Below the pieces are notes generated by a model, which was not told the origin of the DNA, did not search any database, and saw only the letters and a program-made list of their open reading frames with translations. DNA of 33,642 nucleotides, taken from the NCBI GenBank assembly GCA_001275005.1, contig JWZX01002533.1, positions 1-33,642 on the forward strand. The letters are read 5' to 3'. The position numbers and the translations under genes were made by a program. This document shows, piece by piece, positions 4,771 through 29,210 of the stretch (position 1 is the stretch's first letter; each line of letters begins with the position of its first letter). This stretch comes from Chrysochromulina tobinii (lineage: Eukaryota > Haptophyta > Prymnesiales > Chrysochromulinaceae).

Positions 4771-7700
4771 CTATTCGGCCGAGGACGCTGGGACCGGATG
4801 CTCAGCCCCCTGCCGCGTCGCCTTGCGCTTGCGCTTCTCGGCCTGCAGCTTGCTGTTCTGTGCCTCGATGACCTTCGCCGCTTTCTCCTGCTGCAGCTCA
4901 ACACGGCGCTTATTCTCCGAGCGGCTCCGATAATACATCCTGGCCTCCCGCTTGCGCGTCGCGTACTCATCGACCAACTTGCGCGCGTACACCCGTGGGT
5001 CGAGGCTCGGCCATGGGTCGGGCTTGAGGTCGTACCTGCATGCAATGAGGAGGGCCATCAGCATGCAATGAGGGAGGGAGGGTCGAGGCTCGGCCATGGG
5101 TCGGGCTTGAGGTCGTACGGAGGCTCGTCGTTGTATCTGCGGCCAGAGGGATCGGCATAGGGTGCAATTAGGGTGCAATTAGGGTGCAATTAGGGTGCAA
5201 TTAGGGTGCAATCTCAGAGTGTTTGGAGGCCATCAAGGGGCACTTGGAGGCCATCAAGGGGCACTTGGAGTGGCGCCATTCGTTACTTGATGAGCACGGA
5301 TGAGTACTCGGCGATGATGAGAGTCCGGTACAGGTTCGTCAAGATCCACAGCACGATGCACGTGAACGAGGTGAGGTAGATCAGGTCGATGACTGAGGGG
5401 AAGTCCGTCTCCATCGTAGGCCAGATGGTGGATGATTGCGCCATCTCCTTAAATGGAAGGGCGGTGGGCCGGCGCAGGAGGTAGATTGTGGTGCCTAGAG
5501 AGGTGATGACATTATGGAACGGGTACGCAGTCGGGTAGAGCAGATTGCCAGTCAGTGCGAAGGTGACCATCGCGATCAAGAGGAAGATGAGGGCAGGCAC
5601 AAGCTTGACGCATGCGCGGCCCATCGTGATGCGCATGAGGAAGAGCCTCTTGGAGACGATGGAGTAGTAGAGCGCGAGGCGCAGCACGCACCTGATGAGG
5701 GACGCAAACAGCGATCATCAGTGGTCATCAGCGGTCATCAGCGGTCCTTAGTGGTCGTCAGTGGTCATTAGCGGTCATCAGCGGTCATTAGCTGGCAAGT
5801 AGCAGAGCGCGAGGCGCGCAGCACGACACTAGCATCATCAGTGGGCATCAGAGCCATCAGCGGTCATCAGTGTCATCATTGTCATCAGTGTCATCAGCAC
5901 GCACACGAGCAGTGCCGCCCCAAACAATTGCGAGGAGTAGCGCATCGAGAAGAGCGTGCGCGCCATAGTGGGCATGTAGGGCGGTGGCCACGTGGCGTCT
6001 TCTTTGAATAAGACTGATGGAGCGCGTGAGAAGAGACCATCAGCGGTCATCAGCGGCCATCAGTGGTCATTAGCGGTCATCAGCGATCATCAGCGGCCAT
6101 CAGCGGTCATCCGCGGTCATCAGCGGCCATCAGTACCAATCCGTGGCGATCAGTAGCCATCAGAGGTCATCAGCATGCACACCCTGGAGAGCGTCCATCT
6201 CGGCATAATGGTAATCATCAGAGGTCATCAGCATGCACACCCTGGAGAGCGTCCATCTCGGCATAATGGTAATCATCAGAGGTCATCAGCATGCACACCC
6301 TGGAGAGCGTCAATCTCGGCGTTCTCGGTGCGTCGCACGAACCAGCCACTCACTCCGAGCGCGGCCGTGAGAAAGTGCGCGACCATCTCGGGCTTGACGA
6401 TGAACCAGACGGGGGCTCCTCCCACAGTACCGAGCGCCGCATCGACGCCGAAGAGTTTGCCGATCGTGTTCGAGGCCGCGATGCGCAGAAAGTTGATGAT
6501 GACTTGGAGGGCTCGAAGGCCGAGCCAAATGATGAGAAGGTATTCGAGGAAGTCGCCCATGAACGAATTGGACGAGAGCGAGCCTGCGATGAGGAGGAGG
6601 GCAAGTCGCAGCGGTCATTAGCGGCCATTAGCGGCCATTAGCGGCCATTAGCGGCCATTAGCGGCCATTAGCGGCCATTAGCGGCCATTAGCGGTCATTA
6701 GCGGTCATTAGGAGGAGGGCAATTCATTCGTGTGGACCTCCGCGGCAATCAACGACTGGACAGTGCTCCTCTCAGAGGTCATCAGAGGTCATCAAAGGTC
6801 ATCCTCAGAGGACATCCTCAGAGGACATCCTCAGTACCTGCAACGCAGCTAAACTGCACTTTCGCGTAGCCAGTGCGAATGAGCTCCGTCACGATCTGCG
6901 TGTTCGCAACGTGATCCGTCTGCGGGTTGTAAAAGGTCATGTCGATGCCCACCGCAAGCGTCTGGCGATCGAGCCACGAATTCTCGGTGAGCCCACGCAG
7001 CACGGTGCGCAGCTCGAAGAAGGTCAGATTCGGTGGAAGGGTAAGGGCGAAGCCGCCGGTAGCGGCTGCCTCAAAAGCCGGTACCTGAAAAGGGACGCGA
7101 TCAGAGGTCATCAGAGGTCATCAGAGGTCATCAGAGCTCATCAGAGCTCATCAGAGCTCATCAGAGCTCATCGGGACTCATCAGAGCTCATCAGGACTCA
7201 TCAGAGCTCATCAGAGCTCATCAGAGCTCATCAAAAGGCAATCATGGTTCATCGGTGGCCGCCTCCAAAGGAAGGTACCGTCGGCGACGGGAAACCATCA
7301 GAGGTCATTAGAGGCAATCACGGTTCATCTCCAAGGCAGGTACCGTCGGCGATGGAAAACCGAGCTCTTCGGCTGTTTGGTAAACGAAGGCGGGCAAGAG
7401 GCCAGTGTAGGTGGTACCATTCCAGCCAGTAAAGTTGGCAGAGCCCGCGCTGGGGCTGCCTCCACCCGATCTTGTGGCATTACTGGTACTTGTGCCGGCG
7501 CTGCCGGCGCTGTTGGCGCTGTCGGCGCTGGTGGTCAAGCGCTTCACAGACGGCCCCGGGCACGCGGGATAGCACTCGACACGTGGCACGTAGAAGGCTG
7601 CCGCGGCGGCCGTGCGCTCAGGCGGCGCATGGGGTGCCAACGGCCCGAAATTGGTCGTGACGGTGTTCTCGGAGGAGTAGCAGAGGGAGACGTTACCCGG

Positions 7701-10700
7701 GGAATCGTCAACCGCGGAGATCTTGGCGAGCTCACCCAATCCCACAGGGTCGGTCGAGTCGAGATCGGTGCTCGTGTATTCAAACGGCACCGATGATGGC
7801 TTGTACCTGCGAAGGAGGGACGTGGCGCCCTGGTGAGCGCGTGCATGCGAGGAAGGGGTGGGCTGGGGGGGCTTGTACCTGCGGGACGCGCATTGAGGCA
7901 CGGTCACCTCATTACCGCGCATGCTCGGCTATCAGAGGTCATCAGAAGCAATTAGAGGCAATCAGCGTACAGAGACTTGGGGATGGCCGTCAGAGGTCAT
8001 CAGAGGTCATCAGAGGCAATCAGCGTACAGAGACTTGGGGATGGCCGAGGAGCCATTCGACCAAGGCCACCAAATCGAGCCGCTCTCTACAAACATCATC
8101 CCCGGGCATAGTGCTCGGTCTGCGGTCGCCCCTCGGATCTGCATCAGCCGAATGCCGCCAAGCAGCAGGTTCTTGCCACGCACCACAATCGGCGCCGGCT
8201 CGATGAACTGTTGAGCTGTCGCGTTCATGAGCGGAGATACGATCTCGTCAGAGCAGAGTGGTCATCAGCGGTTATCAGCGGTCTCATCAGCAGAGATACG
8301 ATCTCGTCAGAGCAGAGTGGTCATCAGCGGTCATCAGCGGTCATCAGCGGTCTCATCAGCGGTCATTAGCGTACCGGTCTCATTAGAACAGAGAAGGAGC
8401 GCCAGTGGGCCGAGAAGGCAGTTTGGAAAGAGGACGTACGGCAATGAGTTGATGAGGAAGTCTTGGAACATGGACATCGAGTTGACGTGCGCCAGGTCGG
8501 TGAGCGAATCCGAGACGACGTATCTGCATGCAACGAGGAGGGCCATGCCATCAGCATGCAACGAGGAGGGCCATGCCATCAGCATGCAACGAGGAGGGCC
8601 ATGCCATCAGCATGCAACGAGGAGGGCCATGCCATCAGCATGCAATGAGGAGGGCCATGCCATCAGCATGCAATGAGGAGGGCCATGCCATCAGCATGCA
8701 ATGAGGAGGGCCATGCCATCAGCATGCAACGAGGAGGGCCATGCCATCAGCATGCAATGAGGAGGGCCATCAGCATGCAATGAGGAGGGCAATCAGCATG
8801 CAATGAGGAGGGCCATCAGCATGCAATGAGGAGGGCCATCAGCATGCAATGAGGGAAGGCTCTCCGCGAGACGAGACGTACTCGAAGGGCGTATTGAAAG
8901 AGTTATCAGAGGCAATCAGCGGAAGTCATCAGCGGTCATCAGCGTACTCGAAGGGCGTATTGAAAGAGTCATCAGAGGCAATCAGCGGAAGTCATCAGCG
9001 TACTCGAAGGGCGTATTGAAAGAGTCTTCGAGGGCGGAACACATCTCTCGTTGCGTCTCCACATGGGTCTTAATGAAGGCGACTTGATAGATTAAAATGG
9101 CCAGCGCGACGGTCTCAAACACCATCTTAAGCATCTCAAAGCGCGTGAGGAAGGTTGGACTCCAGGCGAAGAGGCGCGTACGAATATCGTCTTCGAAATC
9201 GCCCATGTCCTCGCCCTCCGCCCCGGCCATCCGTCTTGCGCTCGCTTTCTGCCTCGCGCGCGCCTGCAAGCAAAGGAGGGAATCACTCGGAGGCAATCAG
9301 AGGCGATCAGAGGCGATCAGAGGCAATCAGACGCGCGCCTGCATGAAACGAGGGACGCATTCGACCGTCATCAGTCGTCATCAGTGGCGCGTACCTTGAG
9401 CACGGTGTCCACCTCGTGCTCAATATTCAGTGGCCATCAGTGGCCATCATCAGTGGTCATCAGAGGCCATCAGCATGCACACCTTGAGCATCTTGTCTAC
9501 CTCAAGCCCGAGATTCCTAGCGTCCCTTGCATCGTCCTGAGCGTCCTCCTCCGCCGCGGCCACGGCGCCCACAGCCCCCTTTTGGGATGCCGAGCGCTCC
9601 TGATGAAGCGTAATCAAGAACAGCTTAGTGATAGTCCTCTGCGCGGAAAGGTCCAACGCCTCAAAGACCAACGTGCGCCGTAAAAAGTGGACGCCGTTCT
9701 GGTCGGTCACCACGTGCCGCAGAGGACTGATGTGCCAGTACTCACACGCGGTCTCAATGAGCCTCTCGAAGGTGACGTCGTACCTGCATGCAATGAGGAG
9801 GCCATCCGCATTCACACTGCATTCACACGCGGTCTCAATCAGCCTCCCGAAGGTGACGTCGTACGAGATCGGGAGCTCGAGTGACGAGATCGGGAGCTCG
9901 AAGTGACTCGGAGTCATTAGGGGTCATTAGGGGTCATTAGGGGTCATCAGGGTTCATGAGCGGTCATTACGAGATCGGGAGCTCGAGTGACTCGGAGTTG
10001 AAGTGCAGCTGCACCAACTTGTTGGGTTGCTGTGACGATCGCAGCAGGCGGTCGTCGAACAAGTTGCCTGCAAGGCGAGCGTGAGGCGTCATCACTGATC
10101 ATCAATGGCACTCGATCGCAATCAGAAGCACTCACCGGTAATCAGAGCCTCCTCGATCCGGTGCCTCTCGAGGCGTGCGTCGGCGCCCGGTGGCATCGAG
10201 ATGAGATGAGCTCGCGCAAGCTCGCGTAACAGGGCGAGCAGCGCCTTGCCATAGTCGATATGGAGCTGCGAGGCGAGCTTGGCTGCCATGAGCTCTGGTG
10301 GCTGATCCGCATCGCGCATCAGCTCCTCCGTGCGCTGCGTATGCATGCGCCCCATGTACGTGCGCAGCACCTCCTCGAGCTTGGCGGAGATGACCTGATG
10401 AGGGTGGCAATCAGAGGCTCATCAGGGGTCATCAGAGGCGCAGCACCCCCTCGAGCTTGGCGGAGATGACCTGAGGTGAGGTCGGGCGAGGTCGGCGAGG
10501 TCGGCGAGGTCGGTGAGGTCGGCGAGCAGAGGCCCGTGCGCTGATTGCGGGCCAATCAGGGGGCCATCACGGGCCAATCACGGGCTTCTCGTGACAATCT
10601 CGTGGCAATCTCGGGGCACTCCGAGGGGCACTCCGAAGGGAAAGCACTCGCCTGCGGCGGCGAGATCGGCGAGTCGAGGCCCTTGAGCTGATCCGCGAGC

Positions 10701-11140
10701 ACCGGTGCCAGCTGCTCCCGCAGCTCCTCGACGAGCTGCTTGCCGAGCGTCTTGGGCGGCAGCCGGGAGGCCATCACATCCGCCTGGATGATCGCCGCAT
10801 CCGACGGCTTCGTGGACGCCTGGAATGCCTTGGTGAGGGCGCGGAAAGTGCTAATGTCGCCGCCAGCGCCGCTCCCGCCGCCGCGACCAATTCCACCGAC
10901 GGGGCCGCCCGTCGCCGTGCACTCGACCGGCTCCGCGGAGGCGATCGGCGTGCGCGACACTGCATATTCATCCATGACGGTCTGCAGTGCATCCAACCGC
11001 GCCAGGACCGTCTCGAGCTCCTCTGCTAGACGCAGAGCCTCGTTAATGTGGAGGTCGTTGGACCCGAGGGCCTTCTCAAGCTCAAGGGCGCGTTTACGCA
11101 GCGCTACGATGTCTGTGCGGGTGCGGTAGTTGGCATCCAT
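4771..11140 (-). CDS. Polycystin (TRPP/PKD2)-like cation channel, 14 exons
   Basis: Exons in transcript order are 11140-10652, 10394-10136, 10067-9971, 9783-9483, 9263-9004, 8523-8375, 8215-8029, 7806-7344, 7084-6838, 6583-6299, 6013-5905, 5691-5287, 5136-5119 and 5035-4771. Every junction keeps frame and gives 1177 residues ending in TAG. Residues 1-425 are a cytosolic helical region. S1 is about 427-445. The extracellular TOP (polycystin) domain spans about 450-820 and includes NLLLGGIRLMQIR and the hallmark W772-x-D774 and FYNP (786-789). S2 is about 826-847, S3 about 875-897, S4 about 932-958, S5 about 980-998, a pore loop about 1003-1022 and S6 about 1050-1078. A charged coiled-coil tail occupies about 1105-1160. 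Such channels pass Na+/Ca2+ in cilia or endomembranes. Exon 13 is an 18-nt microexon. Intron 1 starts with GC. The ATG at 11140 is the first in frame, but a further 5' exon is possible because the frame is open upstream with a hydrophobic stretch. The gene is divergent from the Myb gene. Confidence 0.85.
5036..5118 (-). repeat. Polycystin intron 13 (83 nt), begins with a 38-nt copy of exon 14
   Basis: The + strand segment 5081-5118 (intron) is identical over 38 nt to 4998-5035 (start of exon 14). The remaining 45 nt of the intron are a CCCTCC/TTGCATGC/CTGATGG module ending TTGCATGCAG. Retention would repeat YDLKPDPWPSLDP and then stop, losing the coiled-coil tail. Confidence 0.85.
5137..5286 (-). 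repeat. Polycystin intron 12, 11-bp and 21-bp tandem repeats
   Basis: About five units of GGGTGCAATTA (CCTAATTGCAC in transcript sense) lie at 5160-5213. Two copies of a roughly 21-bp unit containing CTTGATGGCCTCCAAGTG lie near 5224-5270. The donor is GTAACG and the acceptor GGCCGCAG. Confidence 0.75.
5692..5904 (-). repeat. Polycystin intron 11, with 10-nt terminal direct repeat and acceptor echo
   Basis: The intron begins GTGCGTGCTG and exon 12 begins with the identical GTGCGTGCTG. A diverged copy of the first roughly 35 nt of exon 12 lies at about 5793-5828. CTGATGACCR units occupy both ends. Splicing restores one continuous S4 helix (LLVCVLRLALYY). Confidence 0.85.
6014..6298 (-). repeat. 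Polycystin intron 10, 58-bp repeat duplicating the exon-10 donor
   Basis: A 58-bp period starts at 6175, 6233 and 6291; the third copy is the genuine exon-intron boundary. Each copy carries the exon-10 end GACGCTCTCCAGG followed by GTGTGCATGCTGATGACC, so two extra donor sites are present. CTGATGACCG decamers fill 6030-6170. Confidence 0.85.
6584..6837 (-). repeat. Polycystin intron 9, perfect decamer array
   Basis: Ten contiguous 10-bp units of GCGG(C/T)CATTA lie at 6611-6710. In transcript sense this is TAATGRCCGC, so CTAAT recurs every 10 nt. Further CTGATGACC and GAGGATGTCCT repeats lie near the donor. Confidence 0.9.
7085..7343 (-). repeat. Polycystin intron 8, CTGATGAGCT array plus echoes
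   Basis: The intron opens GTACCTGCCTTGGAG and exon 9 opens GTACCGGCTTTTGAG. A second in-intron copy (CGCCGACG|GTACCTTCCTTTGGAG) is also present. About a dozen CTGATGAGCT/CTGATGACCT units follow (about 7100-7232). The acceptor is CCCTTTTCAG. Confidence 0.8.
7807..8028 (-). repeat. Polycystin intron 7, with donor and acceptor echoes
   Basis: The exon-7 end CCATCCCCAAGTCTCT|GTACGC recurs once inside the intron with its following CTGATTGCCTC unit. The exon-8 start CGCAG|GTACAAGCC recurs about 55 nt upstream of the acceptor used. The chosen junction gives IPKSL-YKPSS in frame. Confidence 0.8.
8216..8374 (-). repeat. Polycystin intron 6, with a duplicated junction-like block
   Basis: A roughly 50-nt block reading CTCTGCTCTGACGAGATCG in transcript sense occurs twice and resembles the exon-6 end. 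The last intron bases (AACGCGACAG) resemble the exon-6 terminus AATGAGACCG. CTGATGACCG units separate the blocks. Confidence 0.7.
8524..9003 (-). repeat. Polycystin intron 5 (480 nt): 28/23-bp minisatellite plus two donor echoes
   Basis: Thirteen head-to-tail units occupy about 8526-8857, with a 28-bp period that shortens to 23 bp. In transcript sense each unit contains CTGATGG, a CCCTCCTC pyrimidine run and TTGCATGC. Only the unit next to exon 6 ends in CAG; the others read TGCATGCTG. The exon-5 end (CTCTTTCAATACGCCCTTCGA|GTACG) is repeated twice inside the intron, at about 8878-8903 and 8944-8970. Confidence 0.85.
9264..9482 (-). repeat. Polycystin intron 4, with donor and acceptor echoes
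   Basis: A diverged copy of the exon-4 end (GAGGTGGACACCGTGCTCAAG then GT) lies at about 9392-9427 inside the intron. A second acceptor-like TTTCATGCAG|GCGCGCG precedes the real TGCTTGCAG|GCGCGCG. CTGATNRCC units fill the rest. Confidence 0.75.
9784..9970 (-). repeat. Polycystin intron 3, with echoes of both flanking exons
   Basis: The last bases of exon 3 (CTCGAGCTCCCGATCTC) recur twice more inside the intron. The first roughly 40 nt of exon 4 (GTACGACGTCACCTTC...) also occur once upstream of the real acceptor, with a few substitutions. Between them are CTAATGACCC units. The acceptor is TTGCATGCAG. Confidence 0.8.
10068..10135 (-). other. Polycystin intron 2 (68 nt)
   Basis: This short GT-AG intron (GTGAGTGCTT...CCTTGCAG) joins ALIT to GNLFDD in phase 1. 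It holds a few CTGAT/TTGAT-type motifs but no long array. Confidence 0.75.
10395..10651 (-). repeat. Polycystin intron 1 (GC-AG), with an exon-2 echo
   Basis: The intron starts GCGAGTGCTT and ends CCCTCATCAG. It contains a 33-nt copy (10438-10470) of the first 33 nt of exon 2 (10362-10394), with one mismatch and including its own AG|GT-like junction. It also holds GTCGG(C/T)GAG tandem repeats near 10480-10525. Confidence 0.75.
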
Positions 11141-11407: not shown

Positions 11408-12730
11408 ATGCCAAAGACCGAGCGCGCTCCTCTCCATCGCCTCGCCGCCGCCGCCACGCCGCTGGGACGCGCGCCCACAGCCGGCGCTCGCCCCTCGCTG
11501 CGGCCGCGCACCGACGTGAAGCACGACGAGTTGGAGACCTTTCAGTGGGGCGCGGACGACTCTGACGCGCTCGATACGTCGCCGCCACGCCAACGCCCGC
11601 GCAGCTCGCTCCAGACCCGCGACATCCTTCACGGCACGCCCTTCAACAATTGCGCGCGCTCGTGGAACCCTGAGGAGGACACGCGGCTGCGGAACGCGAT
11701 CGACGATGTGGGCTGCAAGTGGATGGCGGTGGCTCAGCTGGTGGGCGGCGGACGATCTCCCGCGATGTGCCGCAACCGGTTCCAGCGCATGCAGGCCCCC
11801 ATCCACGGCAAACGAGCTGTCAACCTCTGCTCGGCGTGCGGTCAGCCCAAGCGTGGACACACGTGCATCGCCAAACTCGACGCCAAGCTCCAGCGGCATC
11901 CCCCCTTGCCTTTCGTGGCGGCGGCCCCCGGGGGCGCGCCCGATGACGTGGTCGACACCCTCCGGCCGCGCGCTCTCCACGGGGATCAACTGCGGGCCCC
12001 CTTGCGCGATCTGCCCGTCCCTCGCCTACCCTCCTCGTCCCTCTCCGTCCCTCGCCGTCCCTCGCCGTCCCTCTCCGTCCCTCGCCGTCCCTCGCCGTCC
12101 CTCGGCCTCCCGGCGACCCTTGAGGTGCCCGACATGGCGCCCGAAGTTGGGGTGGACGCGTCATACGTGGATGAGTTCGACGCGATGACCGAGTACGATG
12201 ACGAGCCGCACATGGCGCTCGACGAGTGCCCTGCGAGCGGCGGCGCGAGCGGCGGTGGTGGCAGTGGCGGCGGCGGCGGCGGCACGGGCGCCATGTCGGG
12301 CACAGGCACAGCAGGTTGGTCGGCTTTCGAGCGCCATCTCGGGCGCCCCGGCTCCGCCACGGGCGCCATCTCGGGCGGCACGTCACTGTCTACCTCCGAG
12401 TCATCGCAGCTGGGCGGGATGATGCTCGAGCACCATGAGGCAGCCTATTCCTCGGCCTACTGGACGCTCGCGGCGCTCGGCATGGCGCTCGGCTCGCCCG
12501 CGACGACGCCCGAGCCCACCCCACAGCCGCTCGTGCCCTCTTCCTCCTTCGACGTGTCCACGGCGCTCGGCACGGCGCTCGACGGCGTGAAGACGCTCGA
12601 CACGGCGCTCGACGGCGTGAAGACGCTCGGCGGCGCCATCGTGAGCGTCATCGCGGAGCTCGACTTCACGCCCGCGTCGCATTTCGTCAGCGAGCTCCTC
12701 GGGCTCGAGCGCCATACCGAGCTGGAGTGA
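11408..12730 (+). CDS. Single-repeat Myb/SANT protein with CCHC zinc knuckle
   Basis: This 440-residue protein has one Myb-like DNA-binding repeat at about residues 85-131 (W86, W105, then the RSPAMCRNRFQRM recognition-helix region). A C-x2-C-x6-H-x-C knuckle (C141, C144, H151, C153; CSACGQPKRGHTC) follows directly. The two modules suggest a nuclear DNA-binding regulator. The rest is low complexity: SVPRRPSPSL repeats (about 208-237), a Gly/Ser run and a duplicated TALDGVKTLD block near residues 390-405. I start at the ATG at 11408 because the longer frame begins with GTG at 11330. A tandem copy of the last 49 nt, including the stop codon, follows immediately downstream. Confidence 0.8.
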   Translation: MPKTERAPLHRLAAAATPLGRAPTAGARPSLRPRTDVKHDELETFQWGADDSDALDTSPPRQRPRSSLQTRDILHGTPFNNCARSWNPEEDTRLRNAIDDVGCKWMAVAQLVGGGRSPAMCRNRFQRMQAPIHGKRAVNLCSACGQPKRGHTCIAKLDAKLQRHPPLPFVAAAPGGAPDDVVDTLRPRALHGDQLRAPLRDLPVPRLPSSSLSVPRRPSPSLSVPRRPSPSLGLPATLEVPDMAPEVGVDASYVDEFDAMTEYDDEPHMALDECPASGGASGGGGSGGGGGGTGAMSGTGTAGWSAFERHLGRPGSATGAISGGTSLSTSESSQLGGMMLEHHEAAYSSAYWTLAALGMALGSPATTPEPTPQPLVPSSSFDVSTALGTALDGVKTLDTALDGVKTLGGAIVSVIAELDFTPASHFVSELLGLERHTELE

Positions 12731-12804: not shown

Positions 12805-13891
12805 GCGAGGGAGCAGGCACGTGCGATGGTGGGTATCTCGTCCGCCATGCCCACGAGAGCGTCGGCGAAGCCGATGGTGGGGCATCGCATGCGTCAGCTC
12901 CACATCTCTCACCTCATGTTCATCTCTCACTCCATCTCGGACCACTAGCCCGCCCTCGCACGCCTCAAACTTCATCGCGGACGTCGTGTAGACGTGGTGC
13001 ACTCCGCCGCCTTCGGACGCTCGCCGTCAGTCAGTCGAATGACGGCGGTCATCTTGGGCTGTGGAACTGGCTCAGCACCCAAACTCGCGTGACGAGGCGC
13101 CGTCGCGGGCAGACGAGGGCACGTGTTACAACTGTGAGAGGCGCGAGAGAGAGCGCTCAAGAGAGCGCGCCCACCCTTGAGAGACCTTCGGAGAGACCAC
13201 GAGACGCGTCGTACCGGGCTTGGAGTTAGCCAGGCAGATGCGCACCTCACAACGACGCATGCTCGATTCGGATGTGTTTTGGCAGCATGCCTGGGAGCCT
13301 GGGGAGGCGCCACTTACGATGAGGGATGTAATTGCGCCTCTGGCATCATGTGCCTGCTCAATACCTGGTGCGAGCCTCTCTGAGAGTCCCGTGGCGTAAG
13401 TGAACGGGCGACCGCGGCGACGCCGCAGTCAGGCGTGTGCGTGTGCAGCGTGCGCGCGTGAGGTGCGTCTCGCCGGGCAGCCGTCACACGGTGTGGGACG
13501 GTGCTGGCGCCGGCCCAAACACGCCGTCCCCCTTGGTTTCGGAACGAACGCCAAGACGCGAGGAAGCTCGGTGTGTCGGATACGTAAGTTAACAAACTCG
13601 TCTCCGTCCGAAAACCCGTACGCGCTACGCGGCTGGGCTACCAATTGTGGGCCACACGCGAGCCCCCACTTGGCCTTGGCCCATGCATGGGCCCATGCCT
13701 TGGCCCTTGCGCTGGTCGGTTCCGGGGCTCACAGCATGTGGTCGGAAAACTGCGCCTCTGCGCCTTGCTAGCTCAATGAGATTGCACTCCGAGATCACTC
13801 TCGATCGGAAAGCTCACCAGGCGTCCCACCTCAGGCACTGTAGCGTATGTGGTGACGAAAAGAGCGCCGTCACGAGCGTGCGGGCAAAATA
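12805..13891. other. Gap between Myb and ABCG genes
   Basis: No gene is firmly supported in this roughly 1.1-kb interval. A short Cys-rich frame (DEGCNCASGIMCLLNTWCEPL, ending near 13381) and a canonical donor-like GTAAGTG at about 13395 could belong to an upstream exon of the ABCG gene, which lacks a signal peptide of its own. That remains speculation. Confidence 0.4.
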
Positions 13892-16800
13892 ATGGGGCAA
13901 GGCTTCACCCATGTCGCTGGTCCGAAGCCCCCGTCGTGGCTCTCCGACTGCGCCGTGCTAGAGCCGACGGAGTGCATCTCTCGGCCTGAGTGTGGCTTCT
14001 GCTTCACTTCTTTTTCGTGCATGCCTGGCAACGCGAGTGGGCCCGCGGTGGGAGCGCTGCCATGCATTCCGAATCCGGCCGACCCGACGATCCAACCGCC
14101 GGATCACACCTACGACCCTGCCTCGGCCCGCTTCGGCTGGCTGCAGGCCAACTGCTCGTGGGCATACGACAATGCAACCTACGATGCCATCCTCGCCAGG
14201 CACGACTTTGGCGGACCTGGTGGGGGCCCAGCTGGATACGGTCCTCTGAAGAGCTTTGACACGATGCGCCCTCCGCGCTCGCCGTCCATCGACTCGGTTC
14301 CCCCCGAGTGGGACGCGCCGTGCACAGCTGGTGGCCAGCGGCGGTGGGATCCGCTCACCAACTGCAACCCGTCCCAAAAACCGGACGATCCGTGGCTCGG
14401 GCCCTGCAAGGACAACACCTACGCGTGGGGAGGCACCCGCTGCCTGTGCCCCGAGGGGCGGGTGGGCCTCACATGCGGCGGCTGTGCCTCCGATGCCGGC
14501 TGCGGCGACGGGTTCCAGTGTGACCTGCCGGCCTTTTCCCCGGTCGAGGAAGTGCACCTCGGCTGCATAGTGCCGTCGCGTTCGAGCATCTCCTTGTCTC
14601 CGGTTGTTGACCCAAAGTACATCTTCGGCTTCACAGGCACAGATAATGCGCAGCCGTCGTTCGACTTGCGCCTCGGGCCAGGCACGTGGCAGGCGACACT
14701 CAAGAAAGCCATCCCGTGGCCCCTCGGCCAGATCGTGACCTTCCTGAGCGTCAAGCCGGCGCCGCCCCAGGAGGGCAAGTATTCGCGGCTGCTCTCCGGC
14801 ATCTCCTTTGTAGCTGCGGTGCACAGCGAGCAGTACGTCACGGCGATTTCGCACACCTGCCCAGACAAGAAGGCGCTGGGGTTCGACTCGCCCTTTGACA
14901 GCGGTGCCACGTGCCTTCGGTGGACTGTGAGCGACAAGGTGAAGAGCGACGACTTCTTCAGCACCTCGCCGAATTTCTGCCCAGCGAAAGGTCCATGCCG
15001 GCTGCCCAGCTCTAGCTCCCCCGGCGGCTGGGCACGCTTCGATCAAGACACGAAGTCGATCGCGACGTACATCAAGCCGCCGCTCTCTGTCGACTGCCAG
15101 CTGCCGCGGACGCACGACTCCACGCACACAGTCTGCTCGCTCCAGACGAATTACAAGATCCTCGGGTCTCCGTTCATCATCAACATGGATTGCGAGGTGG
15201 CGGCGGGCCGATGCAATGCCGCACGCAACTTTTCGTATCCGTCACCACCATCCGCGCCGCCGCCGCCGCCGCCGTCGCCACTGAACCTCCTCGAGCAGTG
15301 TGCACTGCCCGAGCACTCGCGCCGGTGCACCTGGGGGGCTCTGTTAGTGCCCCTCGGGCTGCTGCTCGTGCTCATGGGCTCTGTGGCCTTGTGCCACCTG
15401 CTCAGCCACTGCTACGACAGGCGGGACCACGGTATCGCACGCCGCCGCTCCGCGCGAAAGCCCCGCCCCCTTGGCAGCCGCCGCCACCGACGCGCCGCCG
15501 ATGTCGGTACGTCGTCCGCGTCGGCAGACGCCCCAATGCCAGTAGTCAGCGTCCCGCCGAGGCGGGCAGCGCGTGTGAAGTGGGCGTCGGAGAGTTCCAT
15601 CGCCATAGAGCTGCCCTCCGACGCGAGCTCGGCTGCGCTGGTGTCTAGCTGGGCCAGCCCGGCGGGTGGCAACAGAACTCAGCTGACCACCGAGTTTCGT
15701 CAGCAGACCACCCTCTCCGACGGTGGTGCATCACTCAACGCGGCGGAGGGCGGTGGTGGCGCCGCATCTCCCGCCGCCGTCGCAGAGGCGGGCGGACGAA
15801 TCGGTGCAGACGAAGCGGGCGAGTGTGGGCAGATTGCCCAGCGGTGTACGACTCTGGGCGTCCTGCCCGTTGCGGCCATCGCCACCTGGCTGCCTGTAGA
15901 GCCATCGCCTCCGAAAACCACGGCGACGGCTCCGCCGAGCTCCCTCGCCGCATCCATGCTCATCCCCCCCAACGCCTCCATCCGGCAGCTCCCCGCGAAC
16001 ACGACGTCCTCCTCGCCCGCGGCCCTGACAGCCGCCGCCGCGCAGCCGCCTCCCCCGCCGCCGCCCCTCAGCTGGCATCACGTGAGCTACCGCGCGGGCA
16101 GAAACGGCCCCCGGCTGCTCCAGCCGTGCACTGCCGAGCTCCATGGTCGCGGTGCGACCAGCAGTGGGCTCTGGGCTATGATCGGCCCGAGCGGCGCGGG
16201 GAAGTCGACACTACTCAGCGTGCTGGCCGGCCGTCGAGAAGAGGTCTCCGTCGAGGCGGGCGCCGGCGAGCGTGCCGAGGTACGCCTTTACGGCCAGCGC
16301 ATGGGGAGCGCCGCCCGGCGCGCTCGAATCGGTTTCGTGACGCAGGAGGACGTGCTGCCCCCTACCTCGACGGTGCGTGAGCATCTCGACTTCCACGCGC
16401 GCCTTCGCGCTCCATGGCTCTCGCGCCGCGCGCGCCGGCAGCTGGTCGAGGCCAGCCTAGGAGCGCTCGGCCTCGGACCGCTCGCTGATCGGTGCATCGG
16501 CGACGGCTTCATACGCGGGCTCTCGGGCGGCGAGAGGCGCCGAACGTCCGTAGGCTGCGAGCTCATCGTCGCGACTGCGCGCACGGCGCATGAGTACGAG
16601 CGCCGTGTCGAGCGCATGGCTGATCGGCATGGCACGAGCGCGAGTGCCCACATGTCGAGCGCGCCGCGCGTACCGCTGCTGCTACTCGACGAGCCCTTCT
16701 CAGGCCTCGACTCGCTCAACGCGCGGCTACTTCTCCACGCGCTCGTCAGCATGGTGAACGGCAACGGCGACGACGCGGCCGACGCGGAGGTTGGCAAGGC

Positions 16801-18202
16801 GACGAGCATTGGAAGCGGCCAGGCGGGCGTGGGCGCATGCGTGCTCCTCTCAATCCATCAGCCTACCGAACGCTTTCTGTCCTGCATGCAAGGAGTGGTC
16901 GTGATGGCGCCGGGCGGCCGTCTCGTCTACACCGGTCCGCTCCGACTGGCTGACGGCAACTGCGCGCTCGCAGCCGCCTTCGATGCGTCACGAGGCCATA
17001 CTCCACGGCTGCGCGACATCTCGCCCAATCCGGCCGAGGCGCTCCTCGAGGTGGTGAGCGCCGTCGGCGACGACGGCGGCGCGGTCGAGCGTCGGCTGCA
17101 GCAACTCTACGCCGAGTACGCCGCGTCGAGCGCCGCGTCGAGCGCGCAGTCGTCGTCGACGCGCGCCATGTTGAGCGCCTCGGCCATCACCGATCAGGGC
17201 GCCGACGCGGCGCCGTGCCTCGCGGGCTTTGGCCGGCAGCTGCTCGCCCTCGCGAGCCGCCACTCGCTTGTCGTGCTACGCGACCCCCTCCTCGTGCTCA
17301 CGCACCTTGGCTCGGGGCTATGCGTGGCGTGCGTGTGCGCGTGGGCCTTCTGGCACGTCGATCTCGAGCTCTCGTCCGGCGTGCTCCAGCGCCTCGGGCT
17401 CCTCTTCTTCCTTGGAGCCCATCTGTTGCTCACGGGGCTCGCCTCGATGGGCGCGTGGCGGCAGGATCGGCTCCTCTACGAGCACGAGAGCGGCGTCGGC
17501 TGCTACGGCGCCGCGGCCTTTGTGCTCTCACGCACGCTCGTCGCCGACGCCGTCCCGATGCGCATGCTGCCCACCTTGCTCATCGCGTGCATCGTCTACC
17601 CGTCGGCCGGGCTGGCCGGCCTCGCGTTCGAAGGCAGCAGCGAGGAGGTGCAGCTCGAATTCGGCTATAAGAAGGCGCTCATGTTCGTCGCATCGCTCTG
17701 CCTCGCCAACCTCGTCCTCGCGAGCACGTTTGCATGCATCGGCATCGTCGCGCGCACCTCGGAGGTGGCGGTGCTCCTGGGCGCGCTGTACGCCCTCTTC
17801 ACGCTCGTCTTCAGCGGCTTCTTGCCAACGTCCAGCCAGATGCCCGCGGCGCTCAGCTGGCTGCCGTACCTGTCGGTGCTACGCTACACGTTCGAGCTCG
17901 TCCTCTCGAACGAGCTGCTCGGCCAGACTGTGATGCTCGTCGAGGAGTGGCCCGGCAGCCCCGAAGCGGGCCAGCCCAAGCTCGTTGACGGAGCCACCAT
18001 CGTCAACTCGAAGGACTACCTCGGCTTCAATCCGTGGGGCGAGGGCGAGTGCCCCTGGGGCGGCGTGACCCTCGACGGCGGCGCCAATGGCCTGCGCGCG
18101 GCGTGCTGGTTCGACCTGTATGTGCCCGCGCTCTGGTTCGTGGGCGCGCTCGGCTTGGCCATCGGACTGCTCATGCTCGACGAGCACCGCAGGCGCGGCT
18201 GA
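13892..18202 (+). CDS. ABCG-type ABC transporter with Cys-rich N-terminal ectodomain
   Basis: This is a 1436-residue intronless frame. Residues 1-480 are Cys-rich, with an EGF-like knot near 186-210 (CPEGRVGLTCGGCASDAGCG). A transmembrane span follows at about 482-505 and a Ser/Pro/Ala-rich linker to about 725. The nucleotide-binding domain has Walker A GPSGAGKST (765-773), signature LSGGE (877-881), Walker B LLLLDEP with D933/E934, and the switch histidine H989 in SIHQPTERF. The C-terminal membrane domain (about 1135-1430) has some six helices. The NBD-before-TMD order is that of the ABCG (White) family, which exports lipids or other hydrophobic molecules and usually works as a dimer. The start at 13892 lacks a signal peptide although the N-terminus looks extracellular, so an upstream exon may be missing. 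Confidence 0.9.
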   Translation: MGQGFTHVAGPKPPSWLSDCAVLEPTECISRPECGFCFTSFSCMPGNASGPAVGALPCIPNPADPTIQPPDHTYDPASARFGWLQANCSWAYDNATYDAILARHDFGGPGGGPAGYGPLKSFDTMRPPRSPSIDSVPPEWDAPCTAGGQRRWDPLTNCNPSQKPDDPWLGPCKDNTYAWGGTRCLCPEGRVGLTCGGCASDAGCGDGFQCDLPAFSPVEEVHLGCIVPSRSSISLSPVVDPKYIFGFTGTDNAQPSFDLRLGPGTWQATLKKAIPWPLGQIVTFLSVKPAPPQEGKYSRLLSGISFVAAVHSEQYVTAISHTCPDKKALGFDSPFDSGATCLRWTVSDKVKSDDFFSTSPNFCPAKGPCRLPSSSSPGGWARFDQDTKSIATYIKPPLSVDCQLPRTHDSTHTVCSLQTNYKILGSPFIINMDCEVAAGRCNAARNFSYPSPPSAPPPPPPSPLNLLEQCALPEHSRRCTWGALLVPLGLLLVLMGSVALCHLLSHCYDRRDHGIARRRSARKPRPLGSRRHRRAADVGTSSASADAPMPVVSVPPRRAARVKWASESSIAIELPSDASSAALVSSWASPAGGNRTQLTTEFRQQTTLSDGGASLNAAEGGGGAASPAAVAEAGGRIGADEAGECGQIAQRCTTLGVLPVAAIATWLPVEPSPPKTTATAPPSSLAASMLIPPNASIRQLPANTTSSSPAALTAAAAQPPPPPPPLSWHHVSYRAGRNGPRLLQPCTAELHGRGATSSGLWAMIGPSGAGKSTLLSVLAGRREEVSVEAGAGERAEVRLYGQRMGSAARRARIGFVTQEDVLPPTSTVREHLDFHARLRAPWLSRRARRQLVEASLGALGLGPLADRCIGDGFIRGLSGGERRRTSVGCELIVATARTAHEYERRVERMADRHGTSASAHMSSAPRVPLLLLDEPFSGLDSLNARLLLHALVSMVNGNGDDAADAEVGKATSIGSGQAGVGACVLLSIHQPTERFLSCMQGVVVMAPGGRLVYTGPLRLADGNCALAAAFDASRGHTPRLRDISPNPAEALLEVVSAVGDDGGAVERRLQQLYAEYAASSAASSAQSSSTRAMLSASAITDQGADAAPCLAGFGRQLLALASRHSLVVLRDPLLVLTHLGSGLCVACVCAWAFWHVDLELSSGVLQRLGLLFFLGAHLLLTGLASMGAWRQDRLLYEHESGVGCYGAAAFVLSRTLVADAVPMRMLPTLLIACIVYPSAGLAGLAFEGSSEEVQLEFGYKKALMFVASLCLANLVLASTFACIGIVARTSEVAVLLGALYALFTLVFSGFLPTSSQMPAALSWLPYLSVLRYTFELVLSNELLGQTVMLVEEWPGSPEAGQPKLVDGATIVNSKDYLGFNPWGEGECPWGGVTLDGGANGLRAACWFDLYVPALWFVGALGLAIGLLMLDEHRRRG

Positions 18203-24909: not shown

Positions 24910-27423
24910 TCATGCCCCAAGTGGACGGCCGAGCCCAAAAGGGAGCGTCTCAAGCTCGATACGGCGCTCAAAGTACTCTTCAGCGGTGATTGCGGCCCAA
25001 AGGAATGAGTGCGGCGCAAGCGACACATTGATCCGGATCGAGTAGTCCACCAGCACCCTGGCAGCCGACTGAGCGGGCACTGGCCATTTGGACGGGTTGA
25101 GCAGCGAGCCACCCCACTCCAAGGCCAGTCGCGAGCCTGGCAGAGCGCCCGCGTAATAGAGTGGCAGCCGCAGCGTGGCGACCTTCGTGGCCGCCGTGGG
25201 ATTGAAGAGGTTGAGGAACGCAATCGGCTCGCCTGCCGCCCGGGCGCTGGCGTTCACGTGCATCGCGGCTTCAACGCCCCGGCCCGTCGGCCTCGAGATG
25301 TGAATCACGTCACTCGACAAGATCGGCCGGTACCTGATGAGGGAGGCAATCAGAGGTCATCAGAGATCATCAGAGGTCATCAGAGGTCATCAGAGGCCAT
25401 CAGAGGTCATCAGAGGTTATCAGAGGGACAGGATCGACCGGTACCGTTTGTAGTGGGCCGTCCAGAGCTTCCACAGCTGCTTGGCTTGTGGGCTGCCATC
25501 GTCGTACATCTCGGGCCCACGGTAGCACGGAATATTCCCCTGCCCGAGCAGCGACGCGAGGGCCTCCTCGAGCGTCTCGAGATGGTCGTCGAGCGGCGGT
25601 GGCGTGCGGTACATCTCAAACCCCAGCCACCCCTCCGTCGTCGGACTGAAGATCGACGAGTCGTAGAGATACAGGCGCGCCATCTGCAGATACTCGGCCG
25701 TCGAGTCCACATGATTCCAAGCATCCGTGTACCCGGCAGGCTCGCGGTTGGTGCCGCCGCTATTCCAGTAGGGATCCGGAACGGTCAGGAATGTGTTGAA
25801 CTCGCGCTTGAGCTGCCGATAGAAGTCAACGTTAGCGGCGTACTGCACGAGCTGCGAGTTATTTACGTGGCGGAAGCCCGACTTGCTTGTGACCGCGCAC
25901 GTGGCGCCCTCATAGGGGCCATCAGTCTCGAGCATGGCCATGCCGGTCTTGTTGAGGAAGGAGACTATGTTGTCCCGGTACTGCTGATGGTAAGCGGTGC
26001 TGAAATCGGCAATGTCCACGCTGCTACCGGGGCCATCGGGCGAGATACACTTGTCATCGCCCGTGACGCCCCCGTACGACAATTGCATCAGAGTATACCC
26101 GCCCATCTCGATGCCCAGCGATTTTGCGAACGACGTGTCGGAGGCGACGCTTGCGATGTAGGTCGGATCGGTGGAAGCTGGATCGAAGCCTGAACCAAAC
26201 GAGAGGAGCATCGCCTCGAAGCCCACCTCCGCGGCCTGTGCGGCGACCCGACGAATGCCCGCCGAGGTTGCATTCGTTGAGTAGAAGTAGAGAAGGCTTT
26301 CGGTCACCTGGGGAAAAAGTGTGCGCATGACTCGGCGGCGGGTGAGCCATTGGCGCTCGGCCTCAGTCGTGTCGCAAATGGTGAAGAACATCGTCATGAA
26401 CCGGTAGGCACCGCCATTGGCCGCGAGCAGCTGCCACGGCCCGAGAGGGTACTGAAGCTGCAGGAGCAGCGCGGTCACTGCGAGGTTGGCGTGCAGTGAC
26501 TGGTCGTTGACGTCATCCTCATAGTCAGGATCTATCCACCACGTGGGATAGTTCATGCGGCTCCCCTCATACGATCCAACATGAGGGTCGGCAGCCGGCG
26601 GCTGCGCATACTTCCAAACGGTTTTGCGTGGCATGTAGTCGGTCTCGACCAGCAACCTGTCCTTGGCATCCTCTGCGACATGCAACTCCTCCGTGACGAG
26701 CGTCTCCACCAGCACCTCGTGATCACCGCCGTTGCTCACCTCAAGCCACTTGGAAAAGGTAGGCAGGCCGTCGTGCAGCTCGTACACGACGGTCACCCGC
26801 ACGCCGCAATAGCAGCCGCAGTGCCCCGCCGGCGGCATGAATCGCACACGGAGCTGCAGACCTAGCGGGGGCCACGCAGCCATCGAGGAGTGACGCTGCC
26901 CAGGAGTCCAGGCCCATGCCGCCTTGGGCTGCGCCGTCTCGTGAGACTCGTACACAAAATCGTCCTCGCCGACGGTCCAATTCCAACGATCTTCCTCGTA
27001 GATCGCGTAACGCATCTGACCACGGAGCCCGCCGATGGCAATGCCCGCTGAGCCGATGCTGCTGCCGGTCACGTTCGGGTCGGTCTGTCCCTCGAGCGCG
27101 TCCGCCGCGTATGGCAGCAGCCCCCGCCGATGAGCTGCACCCTCATCGGGGCAGCTCAACGTGATACGCGCCTCAGGGCTCACACCTCGTAGGACCTCCA
27201 GGACTCCTCCCGTGTCAAATGACGCCTCCGATCGTAGGGCCACTGTGGCAAAGTTGGGCGTAGTAACAAAGCGTCTTGATATCAGACCGTTGGAAAGAAG
27301 CAGGGAGCCATCCGCATCCTTGGTGAGAGTGGATGATACAAGCGGCTTATCGACGAGAAAATCCTCTGACGGGAGGTGACCGAGAGCTTGGAACGCGAGG
27401 AGCATTGCACAAGGACCTAACAT
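24910..27423 (-). CDS. Secreted glycoside-hydrolase-like protein (possibly GH36/clan-D-like), two exons
   Basis: Exons 27423-25445 and 25333-24910 join in phase 2 (KR-YRPILSS) to give 800 residues. A short hydrophobic leader (MLGPCAMLLAFQALG) suggests secretion. The N-terminal half is a beta-sandwich-like region (LLLSNGLISRRFVTTPNF...). A barrel-like region follows (VGFEAMLLSFGSGFD, LGIEMGGYTLMQLSYGG), with MAMLETDGPYEG as a possible acid-residue strand end. A C-terminal beta domain contains PIAFLNLFNPTAATKVATLRLPLYYAG. The order of domains recalls alpha-galactosidase-type (GH36/clan D) enzymes, but this is from general resemblance; substrate and family are not established. Asn-x-Ser/Thr sites are frequent. 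Confidence 0.6.
25334..25444 (-). repeat. Intron of the hydrolase-like gene: CTGATGACCT decamer array with exon echo
   Basis: In transcript sense this 111-nt intron opens GTACCGGTCGATCCTGTCC, and exon 2 opens GTACCGGCCGATCTTGTCG (16 of 19 identical). Eight CTGATNNCCT decamers follow, then CCCTCATCAG. Composition, orientation and acceptor match the polycystin introns about 14 kb away. Confidence 0.88.
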
Positions 27424-27800: not shown

Positions 27801-29210
27801 CTACGATATGGATGTGCTGCTGGCGCCGGAGGCGTCGGCGCCGCTCACCGCCGGGGCGTCGGTGCGGTAGATCGGCGCCTCGCCGCCCGAGGCGCGCCGC
27901 TCGTAGAGCTGCGCGCCGCGCGCGGCGACGCTGTCCATCTGCTTCGCACGCCGCTCACGCGCAACTTCGAGGTTTCGTCTCGCCACCTCGTACTCGGGCT
28001 GCAGCTCGAGCGCGTGCTCAAAGTCGGCAAAGGCCTCGGAGTACTTGCACATCTTGAGCAGCAGCGCACCGCGGTTGTTGTACGACTTCGGGTTCGAAGG
28101 GTCAAGCTCCACTGCCTTTGAGTAGTCATGCTCGGCGCCCTCTATCATCGAGGCATCACGCGCCGACAGCTTGCGATAGCAGTTGCCGCGATTGGTGTAC
28201 GACTGCGCATAGCCCGGGTCGAGAAGGATCGCCCTGTTGAAGCTCTCGAGCGCCCTCGGCACATCGCCCAGCTCGTAGTAGCACACGCCTCGGTCGTTGC
28301 ACGTCTCGGCCGACACCTGCCCCAAGTGGATCACGATCTCGAGATCGGGCAGGGCCTCGGACCACGCGCCCTGGCTGAGGTACATGCGCGCGCGGTCCAG
28401 GAGCGCCTGCCAGCAGATCGGGTCGTGCTCGAGCACCTGCGAGTAGATGGCCTCCGAGCGCGCCCCATCCCCAAGCTGCCAGTGGCACCACGCGCACTGT
28501 AGCCGTACGTGGCTCGCCACCTCGGAAGGCACGAAGGCGAGCACTTGTTCAAACTGCTCGAGCGCGGTCGCGTACTCTTGCACCTCGCAGAGCAGCTTGC
28601 CCGTCTCGTAGAGCGCGGCGAGCACTACCGGCTCCTTGCTCGTGGGCCGCTGCCCGTGCCCCGACAGCTGCAGCGCCCGCGAGTACGCGGCCCTGGCCTC
28701 CTCGATGCGCCCCTCGCGCGAGAGCATGTAGCCATCGGAAACGGCCTTCCAAGCGGCGGCGGCGGCCGGTTCGAGGCCACTCGTCTGCCCCGCCTCGACG
28801 GCGCTCACCTGCTCGCGGTACGTGTCCTCTACGCAGCTGTCTGCGCCGCTGCTTATCGCGCTCGCCGGCTTGGATGAGCGGGTCGCCGCGAGGAGAACCT
28901 GCAGCCACTCCAGCTTTTCCTTGACGGTGTCGGCGTATACGATGAAGGGTTTCTTCTCGGCTGTGTCGAAGTAGAAGGCCGTCGGCGCAAGCGTCGTATC
29001 GAGCGACGAGCCGCCCTCTGCCCGACGCAGATGCCGCACGCGCGTGATCGTTACGGTGCCCTTGCCCTTGCCCTTGCTCGCCGCCGCCTGGTCCTCGTAG
29101 TACGAAAGCTTGCAGTTGGCGCGCAGCACGAACCAGCGCCGCTTGAAGTCGGTGTTGAACGCGTGACCCTGCTTGTGCAGCCAGCCGCGATGCTTGTCCA
29201 CTTCCGCCAT
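27801..29210 (-). CDS. PH domain - TPR protein
   Basis: This is a 469-residue protein from the ATG at 29210 (MAEVDKHRGWLHKQG). A pleckstrin-homology domain occupies about residues 5-110: GWLHKQGHAFNTDFKRRWFVL at the start and EKLEWLQVLLAAT as the C-terminal helix with its invariant Trp. A helical TPR array follows at about 155-440, with clear units such as NDRGVCYYELGDVPRALESF, YTNRGNCYRKLSARD and YNNRGALLLKMCKYSEAFAD. PH domains bind phosphoinositides or proteins at membranes, and TPRs bind peptides, so a membrane-recruited adaptor is likely. A longer frame to 29519 exists, but its extra 103 residues look like divergent-promoter sequence. Confidence 0.85.
   Translation of the reverse strand: MAEVDKHRGWLHKQGHAFNTDFKRRWFVLRANCKLSYYEDQAAASKGKGKGTVTITRVRHLRRAEGGSSLDTTLAPTAFYFDTAEKKPFIVYADTVKEKLEWLQVLLAATRSSKPASAISSGADSCVEDTYREQVSAVEAGQTSGLEPAAAAAWKAVSDGYMLSREGRIEEARAAYSRALQLSGHGQRPTSKEPVVLAALYETGKLLCEVQEYATALEQFEQVLAFVPSEVASHVRLQCAWCHWQLGDGARSEAIYSQVLEHDPICWQALLDRARMYLSQGAWSEALPDLEIVIHLGQVSAETCNDRGVCYYELGDVPRALESFNRAILLDPGYAQSYTNRGNCYRKLSARDASMIEGAEHDYSKAVELDPSNPKSYNNRGALLLKMCKYSEAFADFEHALELQPEYEVARRNLEVARERRAKQMDSVAARGAQLYERRASGGEAPIYRTDAPAVSGADASGASSTSIS

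What the first reader, a model, noticed from the sequence alone, without database searches (positions are those of the whole stretch)
4771..11140. Introns in one channel gene built from sense-oriented branch-point-like decamer arrays
Twelve of 13 polycystin introns contain tandem units of about 10 nt that, in transcript orientation, read CTGATGACC, CTGATTGCC, CTGATGGCC, CTAATGRCC and similar. The CTRAT core is almost invariant while the flanks vary. CTRAT fits the yUnAy/CURAY branch-point consensus, so each intron offers many candidate branch points at a regular 10-nt pitch (ten perfect units at 6611-6710). Family resemblance of the repeats across introns is visible directly. That they act as redundant branch points, or are selected for it, is inference.
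Basis: partly seen in the sequence, partly recalled or inferred. Interest (0 to 1): 0.9.

Follow-up and report, generated by a model that had tools for sequence, protein, structure and literature searches.

The report
Introns built from branch-point repeat arrays
In this single-celled eukaryote, probably a freshwater haptophyte alga, many introns look like recent insertions made of short repeats resembling the signal that starts intron removal, each flanked by a duplicated bit of exon, which suggests a recent and unusual way of making new introns.

Summary
The polycystin gene (minus strand) has 13 modelled introns; 11 of 13 carry runs of a ~10-nt CTRAT unit (112 sense against 5 antisense). Genome-wide there are 9,305 overlapping CTRAT triplets at 10-nt pitch against 137 for the reversed pattern, and 1,074 copies of a 3' module CTGATNRCNTCCCTCATCAGG against 0. 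Predicted coding sequence on at least one side runs sense to the array in 68 of 71 cases.

The start of the intron, from the GT/GC donor, often copies the start of the next exon: 33 of 62 loci, one module each, against 2 of 613 mismatched pairs. Splicing would restore the frame (18 of 18 testable loci). I read them as introner-like insertions at staggered breaks that bring branch point, pyrimidine tract and AG, while the target supplies the donor. The nearest CTRAY lies 14-16 nt from AG in 12 of 16 unselected acceptors: a likely branch point. Selection for redundant branch points is unproven. No RNA data were available. Long variable duplications with a repeat-array body look like a new variant of introner.

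The parts
4771..11140 (-). Polycystin-like channel gene, 14 exons and 13 introns, 1177 aa
   Evidence: gene model; PF20519; protein relatives P0001 (55-57% identical) and P0122 (78%)
10395..10651 (-). Intron 1 (GC-AG), CTRAT x4
10438..10470 (-). 33-nt duplicated target, intron-1 copy (32 of 33 identical to the exon copy 10362-10394)
10362..10394 (-). Exon-2 copy of the same duplicated target
10068..10135 (-). Intron 2, one CTRAT
9784..9970 (-). Intron 3, CTRAT x5, 3' end CATTGCATGCAG
9823..9864 (-). 42-nt duplicated target inside intron 3 (diverged exon-4 copy at 9742-9783)
9264..9482 (-). Intron 4, CTRAT x10
8524..9003 (-). Intron 5, CTRAT x19, includes nearly all of the 28-nt composite array 8522-8839
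8877..9025 (-). Three exact copies of a 27-nt exon-5 edge (8999-9025, 8943-8969, 8877-8903) separated by decamer units
8216..8374 (-). Intron 6, CTRAT x8
   Evidence: exon junction CSNET-AQQ matched by P0001
7807..8028 (-). Intron 7, CTRAT x7, plus a nested array-free stretch between two copies of GTACAAGCC (7870-7878, 7798-7806)
7085..7343 (-). Intron 8, CTRAT x14 (unit CTGATGAGCT)
6584..6837 (-). Intron 9, CTRAT x11, CTAATGGCCG array 6610-6711
6014..6298 (-). Intron 10, CTRAT x16; no interruption here in the 78%-identical relative P0122
5692..5904 (-). Intron 11, CTRAT x12, 10-nt duplicate GTGCGTGCTG (5895-5904, 5682-5691), tail CCCTCATCAG; no interruption here in P0122
5137..5286 (-). Intron 12, CTRAT x4, 11-nt array 5158-5212
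5036..5118 (-). Intron 13; 39-nt exact duplicate of the next exon start (5080-5118, 4997-5035) plus a 44-nt insert ending CATTGCATGCAG
25334..25444 (-). Array intron in a second gene (111 nt): donor-side duplicate 25427-25445, array 25349-25426, module CTGATTGCCTCCCTCATCAG 25334-25353, exon-side duplicate 25316-25334

Best explanation
These are newly inserted spliceosomal introns of an introner-like kind. A piece of DNA made of tandem ~10-nt CTRAT units, often ending in a fixed 20-nt module CTGATNRCNTCCCTCATCAG (branch point, pyrimidine tract, AG), is put into a coding exon at a staggered break, so that about 8-45 nt of target (median about 20) are duplicated on either side (shown as anatomy; the break is inferred). 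Where the left copy begins with GT or GC and the insert ends in AG, removal of left copy plus insert leaves the mRNA as before (shown as sequence arithmetic; splicing inferred). In other copies AG|GT lies inside the duplicate and both splice sites come from the target. Only sense insertions would splice, hence the sense bias (inferred). The CTRAY nearest the AG serves as branch point (likely); upstream units are spare candidates, spacer, or by-products of repeat slippage (open).
For: Exon-start copy at the intron start: one module per locus, repeat-free exon starts only, score >=12 in 33 of 62 loci against 2 of 613 mismatched pairs; of 43 with score >=8 the copy starts GT in 32 and GC in 4. 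Independent array set: flank duplicates in 40 of 71 against 19 of 321; of 35 ungapped ones, 25 allow a restoring GT/GC-AG junction in sense, 5 a GT-AG one in antisense. Frames join after removal in 18 of 18 loci with clear coding on both sides, in 8 of 18 without removal. Copies are perfect in 13 and at least 90% identical in 29 of 38 clean loci, so some insertions look young. A 78%-identical protein on an NCBI 14.2-kb contig, P0122, reads straight through the positions of introns 10 and 11. Arrays hold few AG (59 seen, 276 expected from composition) and GT (77, 384) in sense. Copy number.
Against: No RNA was available; no junction or lariat is shown. 27 of 95 modules have no copy at score >=8, and 10 of 35 ungapped duplicates allow no restoring sense junction. 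Outside the 20-nt module the inserts differ in units and length, so one mobile element is not proven. I did not search for a mobilising enzyme. Arrays in one locus are not significantly more alike than between loci (334 of 2000 shuffles reach the observed value), so the source of an insert is unknown. Part of the duplications are tandem copies of exon edge plus array (16 of 68 at score >=8), which is a different process. The rank decline of intact CTRAY upstream of AG is confounded, because rank 1 was fixed by the pattern used to pick the loci.
Confidence: 0.75

Rival explanations
1. Selected redundant branch points: each unit can be used, and arrays are kept because many candidate branch points raise splicing efficiency.
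For: Core constant while flanks drift between arrays: 18 of 22 unselected arrays have exact CTRAT in sense, 0 in antisense; within arrays 112 core against 177 flank mismatches in 422 units. Nearest CTRAY 14-16 nt from AG in 12 of 16. [quoted passage not shown]
Against: One branch point at the right distance suffices; introns 2 and 13 have one CTRAT each. Common descent of units explains part of the constancy. Within arrays position 5 varies like the flank and position 6 like the core. No CTRAY excess in 60 predicted introns with fewer than 3 CTRAT. In the Gomafu paper the repeats, added in trans, delayed splicing of a weak substrate.
Confidence: 0.3
2. Ordinary old introns in which a satellite grew by slippage, with local tandem duplication across exon-intron edges making the direct repeats.
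For: Edge-plus-array tandem duplications do occur (window 8877-9025 and 6158-6320, L036; 16 of 68 module copies). Some arrays are homogeneous inside and differ from others.
Against: Simple tandem duplication does not put a foreign array between two copies of the same exon start; a copy that starts at GT/GC with the AG just before the second copy recurs in 36 of 62 loci at score >=8; the relative P0122 is uninterrupted at introns 10 and 11.
Confidence: 0.15
3. Classical DNA-transposon introner with terminal inverted repeats and a fixed short target duplication.
For: Inserts often begin near CTGAT and end with ATCAG, a 5-nt inverted repeat; donor from the target copy and AG from the element occurs in known introners (PMC9860276, passages).
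Against: Copies run from 11 to 44 nt in 38 clean loci and 8 to 45 in 36 loci; insert starts are not at one fixed phase; some inserts lack the ATCAG end (L012 2917, L036, L047).
Confidence: 0.08
4. The TRA in the core is kept as a stop codon (TGA/TAA) so that unspliced RNA is destroyed by nonsense-mediated decay.
For: A 10-nt period spreads stops over the frames: 41 of 54 introns have stops in all three sense frames, 9 of 54 in all three antisense frames.
Against: It does not explain constancy of C1 and T5 or the fixed distance to AG.
Confidence: 0.08

Closest known systems
Introners of diverse protists (Gozashti et al. 2022, PMC9860276; passages read)
   Same: Many related introns at unrelated sites; target duplication in part of the families; one splice site from the element and one from the target, or both from the target; copies mostly in genes
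   Different: The passages speak of 3-9 bp target duplications and the main text has no occurrence of 'tandem'; here duplicates are about 8-45 nt and variable, the body is a tandem decamer array, and only a 20-nt 3' module is shared. Its Chrysochromulina sp. example has a 4-bp duplication and the 5' splice site on the element, mostly the opposite arrangement
Double-strand-break introns of Daphnia (PMC4202315; abstract and passages read)
   Same: [quoted passage not shown] frequent internal repeats
   Different: Repeats there are 4-12 bp; here the inserts share a sequence family and carry branch point and AG
Introner elements of Amoebophrya (PMC7789003; abstract and passages read)
   Same: Repeated introns with direct repeats at the borders
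   Different: Those have 8-20 nt inverted repeats, 3-5 nt direct repeats and largely non-canonical splice sites; here GT/GC-AG
Intron gain by tandem genomic duplication (PMC4974935; search listing with start of abstract only; the AGGT mechanism is recalled)
   Same: Two copies of an exon segment with AG|GT bound the intron
   Different: Here an unrelated array lies between the copies

Membership tests
Introners | Many related introns at non-homologous positions in one genome | tested here: met
   9305 overlapping triplets and 1074 modules genome-wide; 11 of 13 introns of one gene with arrays; intron status outside this gene rests on sequence alone
Introners | Similarity along the whole intron copy | tested here: not met
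   Only the 3' 20 nt and the decamer family recur; spacer letters, array length and insert length differ; no formal family clustering was run
Introners | Target site duplication (present in part of the known families) | tested here: met
   33 of 62 loci against 2 of 613 mismatched pairs
Introners | Short duplication of fixed length (3-9 bp in PMC9860276) | tested here: not met
Introners | Terminal inverted repeats (some families only) | tested here: inconclusive
   CTGAT...ATCAG only, start phase variable
Introners | Recent gain against relatives | tested here: inconclusive
   P0122 is uninterrupted at introns 10 and 11, the two positions inside its matching stretch; one relative, loss not excluded
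Introners | Splicing seen in RNA | not testable with these tools
   No reads; protein-level support only (P0001, P0122)
U2-type spliceosomal introns | GT/GC-AG borders, CURAY near AG, U2 snRNA with GUAGUA | tested here: met
   U12 snRNA was not searched
Daphnia-type break-repair introns | Exon-end duplicate of 4-12 bp | tested here: not met
   Same geometry, but 31 of 36 duplicates are longer than 12 nt; short ones under-detected
Tandem-duplication introns | Intron made of duplicated exon alone | tested here: not met
   Array sequence lies between the copies

The most novel reading that the evidence does not exclude
A satellite that makes introns: a self-spreading decamer family, without transposon-like ends, inserts tandem branch-point arrays at staggered breaks in genes with roughly 10-45 nt target duplications. 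The array itself is the functional body, an AG-poor, GT-poor, stop-rich platform that recruits SF1/U2 at many points, so a random fragment of it becomes a working intron wherever a GT happens to begin the duplicate.
Probability: 0.3. Interest if true: 0.9.

Novelty: new variant of a known kind. Interest (0 to 1): 0.76.

Why it matters
How new spliceosomal introns arise is a long-standing question with few recent cases to study. Here a compact genome carries more than a thousand copies of one 3' module and probably thousands of arrays, many with target duplications still readable, which give the insertion site, the duplicated length and the source of each splice site. That would allow the insertion mechanism, the fate of antisense copies and the use of many branch points to be tested directly. 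Long variable duplications are unlike the short ones described for introners, so a different mechanism may be at work.

Tried and rejected
Rejected: chance (reversed-pattern and mismatched controls); a single-gene feature; local copying between neighbouring introns (within-locus likeness reached by 334 of 2000 shuffles); a fixed-length transposon duplication; simple tandem duplication of exon as the only cause.

Led nowhere: 60 predicted introns with fewer than 3 CTRAT gave no branch-point signal and many look false. The rank-decline test is confounded by how loci were picked. A strand test on only 75 nt downstream was weak (66 of 95 in sense). The 18S search did not complete, so the organism is an inference: GC 63.3% in my sample, 53.15 Mb in 2,253 contigs, and contig lengths above 10 kb in all 100 rows, against 63.4%, 59 Mb and 3,472 contigs for Chrysochromulina tobin (PMC4580454, passages); leaving out contigs under about 10 kb would fit.

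Rows dropped: loci L004, L006, L008, L040 (overlaps) and L029 (U2 gene) from the array counts; arrays with too little flank; 5 of 40 gapped duplicates; 57 of 95 modules from the 'clean' set (score, donor, length and repeat filters); 33 of 95 modules (repeat-bearing exon starts and further modules of a locus) from the 62; loci without clear coding on both sides from the 18. The per-position entropies use 57 of 62 arrays, kept and rotated by likeness to CTRAT, so they favour a constant core; the 18 of 22 figure drops only the one mainly exonic array of 23, but is rotated the same way for both strands. The intra-array count leaves out units with more than 3 mismatches.
Full report
Check of the observation. 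The gene lies on the minus strand. Joining 14 exons gives an open reading frame of 1,177 aa and 13 introns; a near-identical hand-joined protein matches the Pfam polycystin domain at E 1e-10. A JGI protein of 812 aa on a 2,524-nt contig, P0001, aligns at 55-57% identity across the positions of introns 5 to 13 with no array sequence; it may come from a transcript or from a gene without these introns. A second protein, P0122, on a 14.2-kb NCBI contig (so probably genomic DNA) is 78% identical and reads straight through the positions of introns 10 and 11; its match ends at the donor of intron 12 and begins inside exon 10 after unrelated residues. The 13 introns hold 112 CTRAT in sense and 5 in antisense; 11 of 13 have runs, introns 2 and 13 have one CTRAT each.

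It is genome-wide. In the 53.15-Mb genome the pattern CTRAT-N5-CTRAT-N5-CTRAT occurs 9,305 times (overlaps counted) against 137 for the same pattern read backwards; CTGATGACCACTGATG occurs 749 times against 0. In 20 unselected 10-kb pieces I found 16 arrays of at least three CTRAT, 9 of them in one piece and none in 15 of 20. Scaled up this suggests some four thousand arrays, very unevenly spread; the figure is rough. Within the window the polycystin gene is full of arrays, a gene at 25.3 kb has one, and the frame at 13,856-18,202 with ABC-transporter domains shows none.

Orientation. I seeded a simple coding model with three Pfam-supported frames of the window, retrained it four times on its own predictions in the window and the 20 pieces, and ran it on the loci. 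Of 71 arrays, 61 have predicted coding sequence in the array's own direction on both sides, 68 on at least one, and 3 lie antisense. Thirty of the 71 come from the window and the unselected pieces (26 sense on both sides, 3 on one, 1 antisense); the rest were picked by pattern. One antisense case, L001, is telling: array plus a 21-nt duplicate add 57 nt, a multiple of three, inside a predicted coding stretch on the other strand, so it may simply be translated. The unit CTGATGACCT has stops in every sense frame and none in the antisense frames.

The duplications. While reading the loci I saw that the sequence before an array often returns after it. A local alignment of the 80 nt before against the 110 nt after gives a score of at least 12 in 40 of 71 arrays and in 19 of 321 mismatched pairs. 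Of 35 ungapped duplicates, 25 allow a GT/GC-AG junction that restores the pre-insertion sequence in sense; 10 do not; 5 allow a GT-AG one in antisense. I then took the 3' module CTGATNRCNTCCCTCATCAG, present with a following G 1,074 times genome-wide against 0 backwards, and asked whether the bases after its AG recur upstream. Over 95 modules in 66 loci they do with score at least 12 in 55, against 4 of 468 mismatched pairs. In 16 of those 55 the copy runs into the repeat itself or hits the 45-nt cap, so that exon edge and array seem duplicated together. With one module per locus and repeat-free exon starts only, the figure is 33 of 62 against 2 of 613; of 43 with score at least 8 the upstream copy begins GT in 32 and GC in 4, and those 36 copies are 8-45 nt long (45 is the cap), median 19.5. 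In 38 clean loci of the wider set copies are 11-44 nt, 13 perfect, 29 at least 90% identical. In all 18 loci where coding is clear on both sides the frames agree after removal of the proposed intron; 8 of 18 agree without it. Twenty-seven of 95 modules show no copy at score 8; they may be old, or made otherwise.

Two kinds of insert. Many module loci follow [copy starting GT][array][...CCTCATCAG][copy]. Others have AG|GT inside the duplicated stretch and an insert that is array alone (L012 at 2917, L036, L047). In one (L003 at 1491) the duplicate ends at the AG and the insert supplies the donor. So the insert need not carry an acceptor. In the window intron 13 is the clearest case: 39-nt exact duplicate, 44-nt insert, AG, exon. 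Introns 1, 3 and 11 and the intron at 25.3 kb show copies of the same kind.

Branch point. TRF, blind to sequence, finds 22 non-exonic period-10 arrays of at least 3.5 copies in the window and the unselected pieces; 18 have an exact CTRAT in the sense consensus and none in the antisense one (9 of the 22 are the window's own, and 9 of the other 13 are exact). Over 57 arrays from all loci, kept for likeness to CTRAT, entropy is 0.13 bit at C1, T2 and A4, 0.43 at R3, 0.49 at T5, 0.35 at position 8 and 0.95-1.69 elsewhere. Within arrays the first five positions change less than the last five (112 against 177 in 422 units; 30 against 49 in 125 units from window and unselected pieces), but position 5 varies like the flank and position 6 like the core. 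Among 16 acceptors ending CCCTCATCAG in window and unselected pieces, 12 have a CTRAY whose A is 14-16 nt from the AG. AG and GT are about five-fold rarer in the arrays than their composition predicts. A U2 snRNA is present (134 bits) and holds GTAGTA on its strand. These facts fit a branch point in the last unit. They do not show that upstream units are used. In module loci intact CTRAY falls from 34 of 47 in the second slot to 8 of 20 in the seventh and 1 of 9 in the tenth, which fits weaker constraint far from the AG, but the first slot was fixed by the search and insert ends differ. Predicted introns with fewer than three CTRAT show no excess (CTRAT 3 of 60, shuffled mean 3.2; CTRAY 11 of 60, shuffled mean 8.2).

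How it probably works. Shown as anatomy: array, duplicate, donor and acceptor geometry, sense bias by predicted coding, gene location. Inferred: a staggered break or two offset nicks, filling-in of the overhangs, and capture of array sequence by end joining, template switching or target-primed reverse transcription. Variable long duplicates and a less precise left end than right end would suit the last two; selection for a working AG would also sharpen the right end. Arrays are not significantly more alike within a locus than between loci, so the donor of each insert is unknown.

Known kinds. Introners are the closest (PMC9860276, passages only). They share copy number, target duplication and the splitting of splice sites between element and target; they differ in duplicate length and body. 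Daphnia neointrons (PMC4202315, abstract and passages) share the geometry with 4-12 bp repeats. I saw no description of such arrays: the C. tobin genome paper's main text mentions introns once, as one per gene on average (PMC4580454, passages), and the capped listings of eight library searches showed none by title or start of abstract. Supplements and subscription papers were not seen, and C. tobin may be among the genomes screened for introners.

Verdict. A real, genome-wide and probably new variant of introner.

Noticed in passing
L012:6728-6787: Ten copies of CTAACC (the CCCTAA telomere hexamer, name recalled) inside a predicted sense intron, each with CTAAC, itself a good branch-point motif.
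   Followed up: no
L001:1480-1557: Array antisense to its predicted gene with a 21-nt duplicate, adding 57 nt (a multiple of three) in a predicted coding stretch: possibly an insertion that is translated.
   Followed up: partly
window 8522-8839: About twelve copies of a 28-nt unit that joins CTGATG to CCTCCTCATTGCATG, a tandem run of branch-point-plus-acceptor-like modules, nearly all within intron 5.
   Followed up: partly
L030:786-952, L049:232-455, L039:161-201, L015:9066-9137: Sister arrays with unit CTGAGTGCNN, where the pyrimidine after the branch A is lost.
   Followed up: no
20 unselected pieces L009-L028: Arrays are strongly clustered: 9 of 16 in one 10-kb piece, none in 15 of 20; neighbouring genes in the window also differ.
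   Followed up: partly
window 27801-29534: PH-TPR protein with 95-100% identical proteins in ENA/JGI data (P0002-P0005): a near-identical organism is in public metagenomes and could give empty sites.
   Followed up: no
window 12015-12104: Nine copies of CCGTCCCTCG in a predicted coding stretch, unrelated to the CTRAT family.
   Followed up: no
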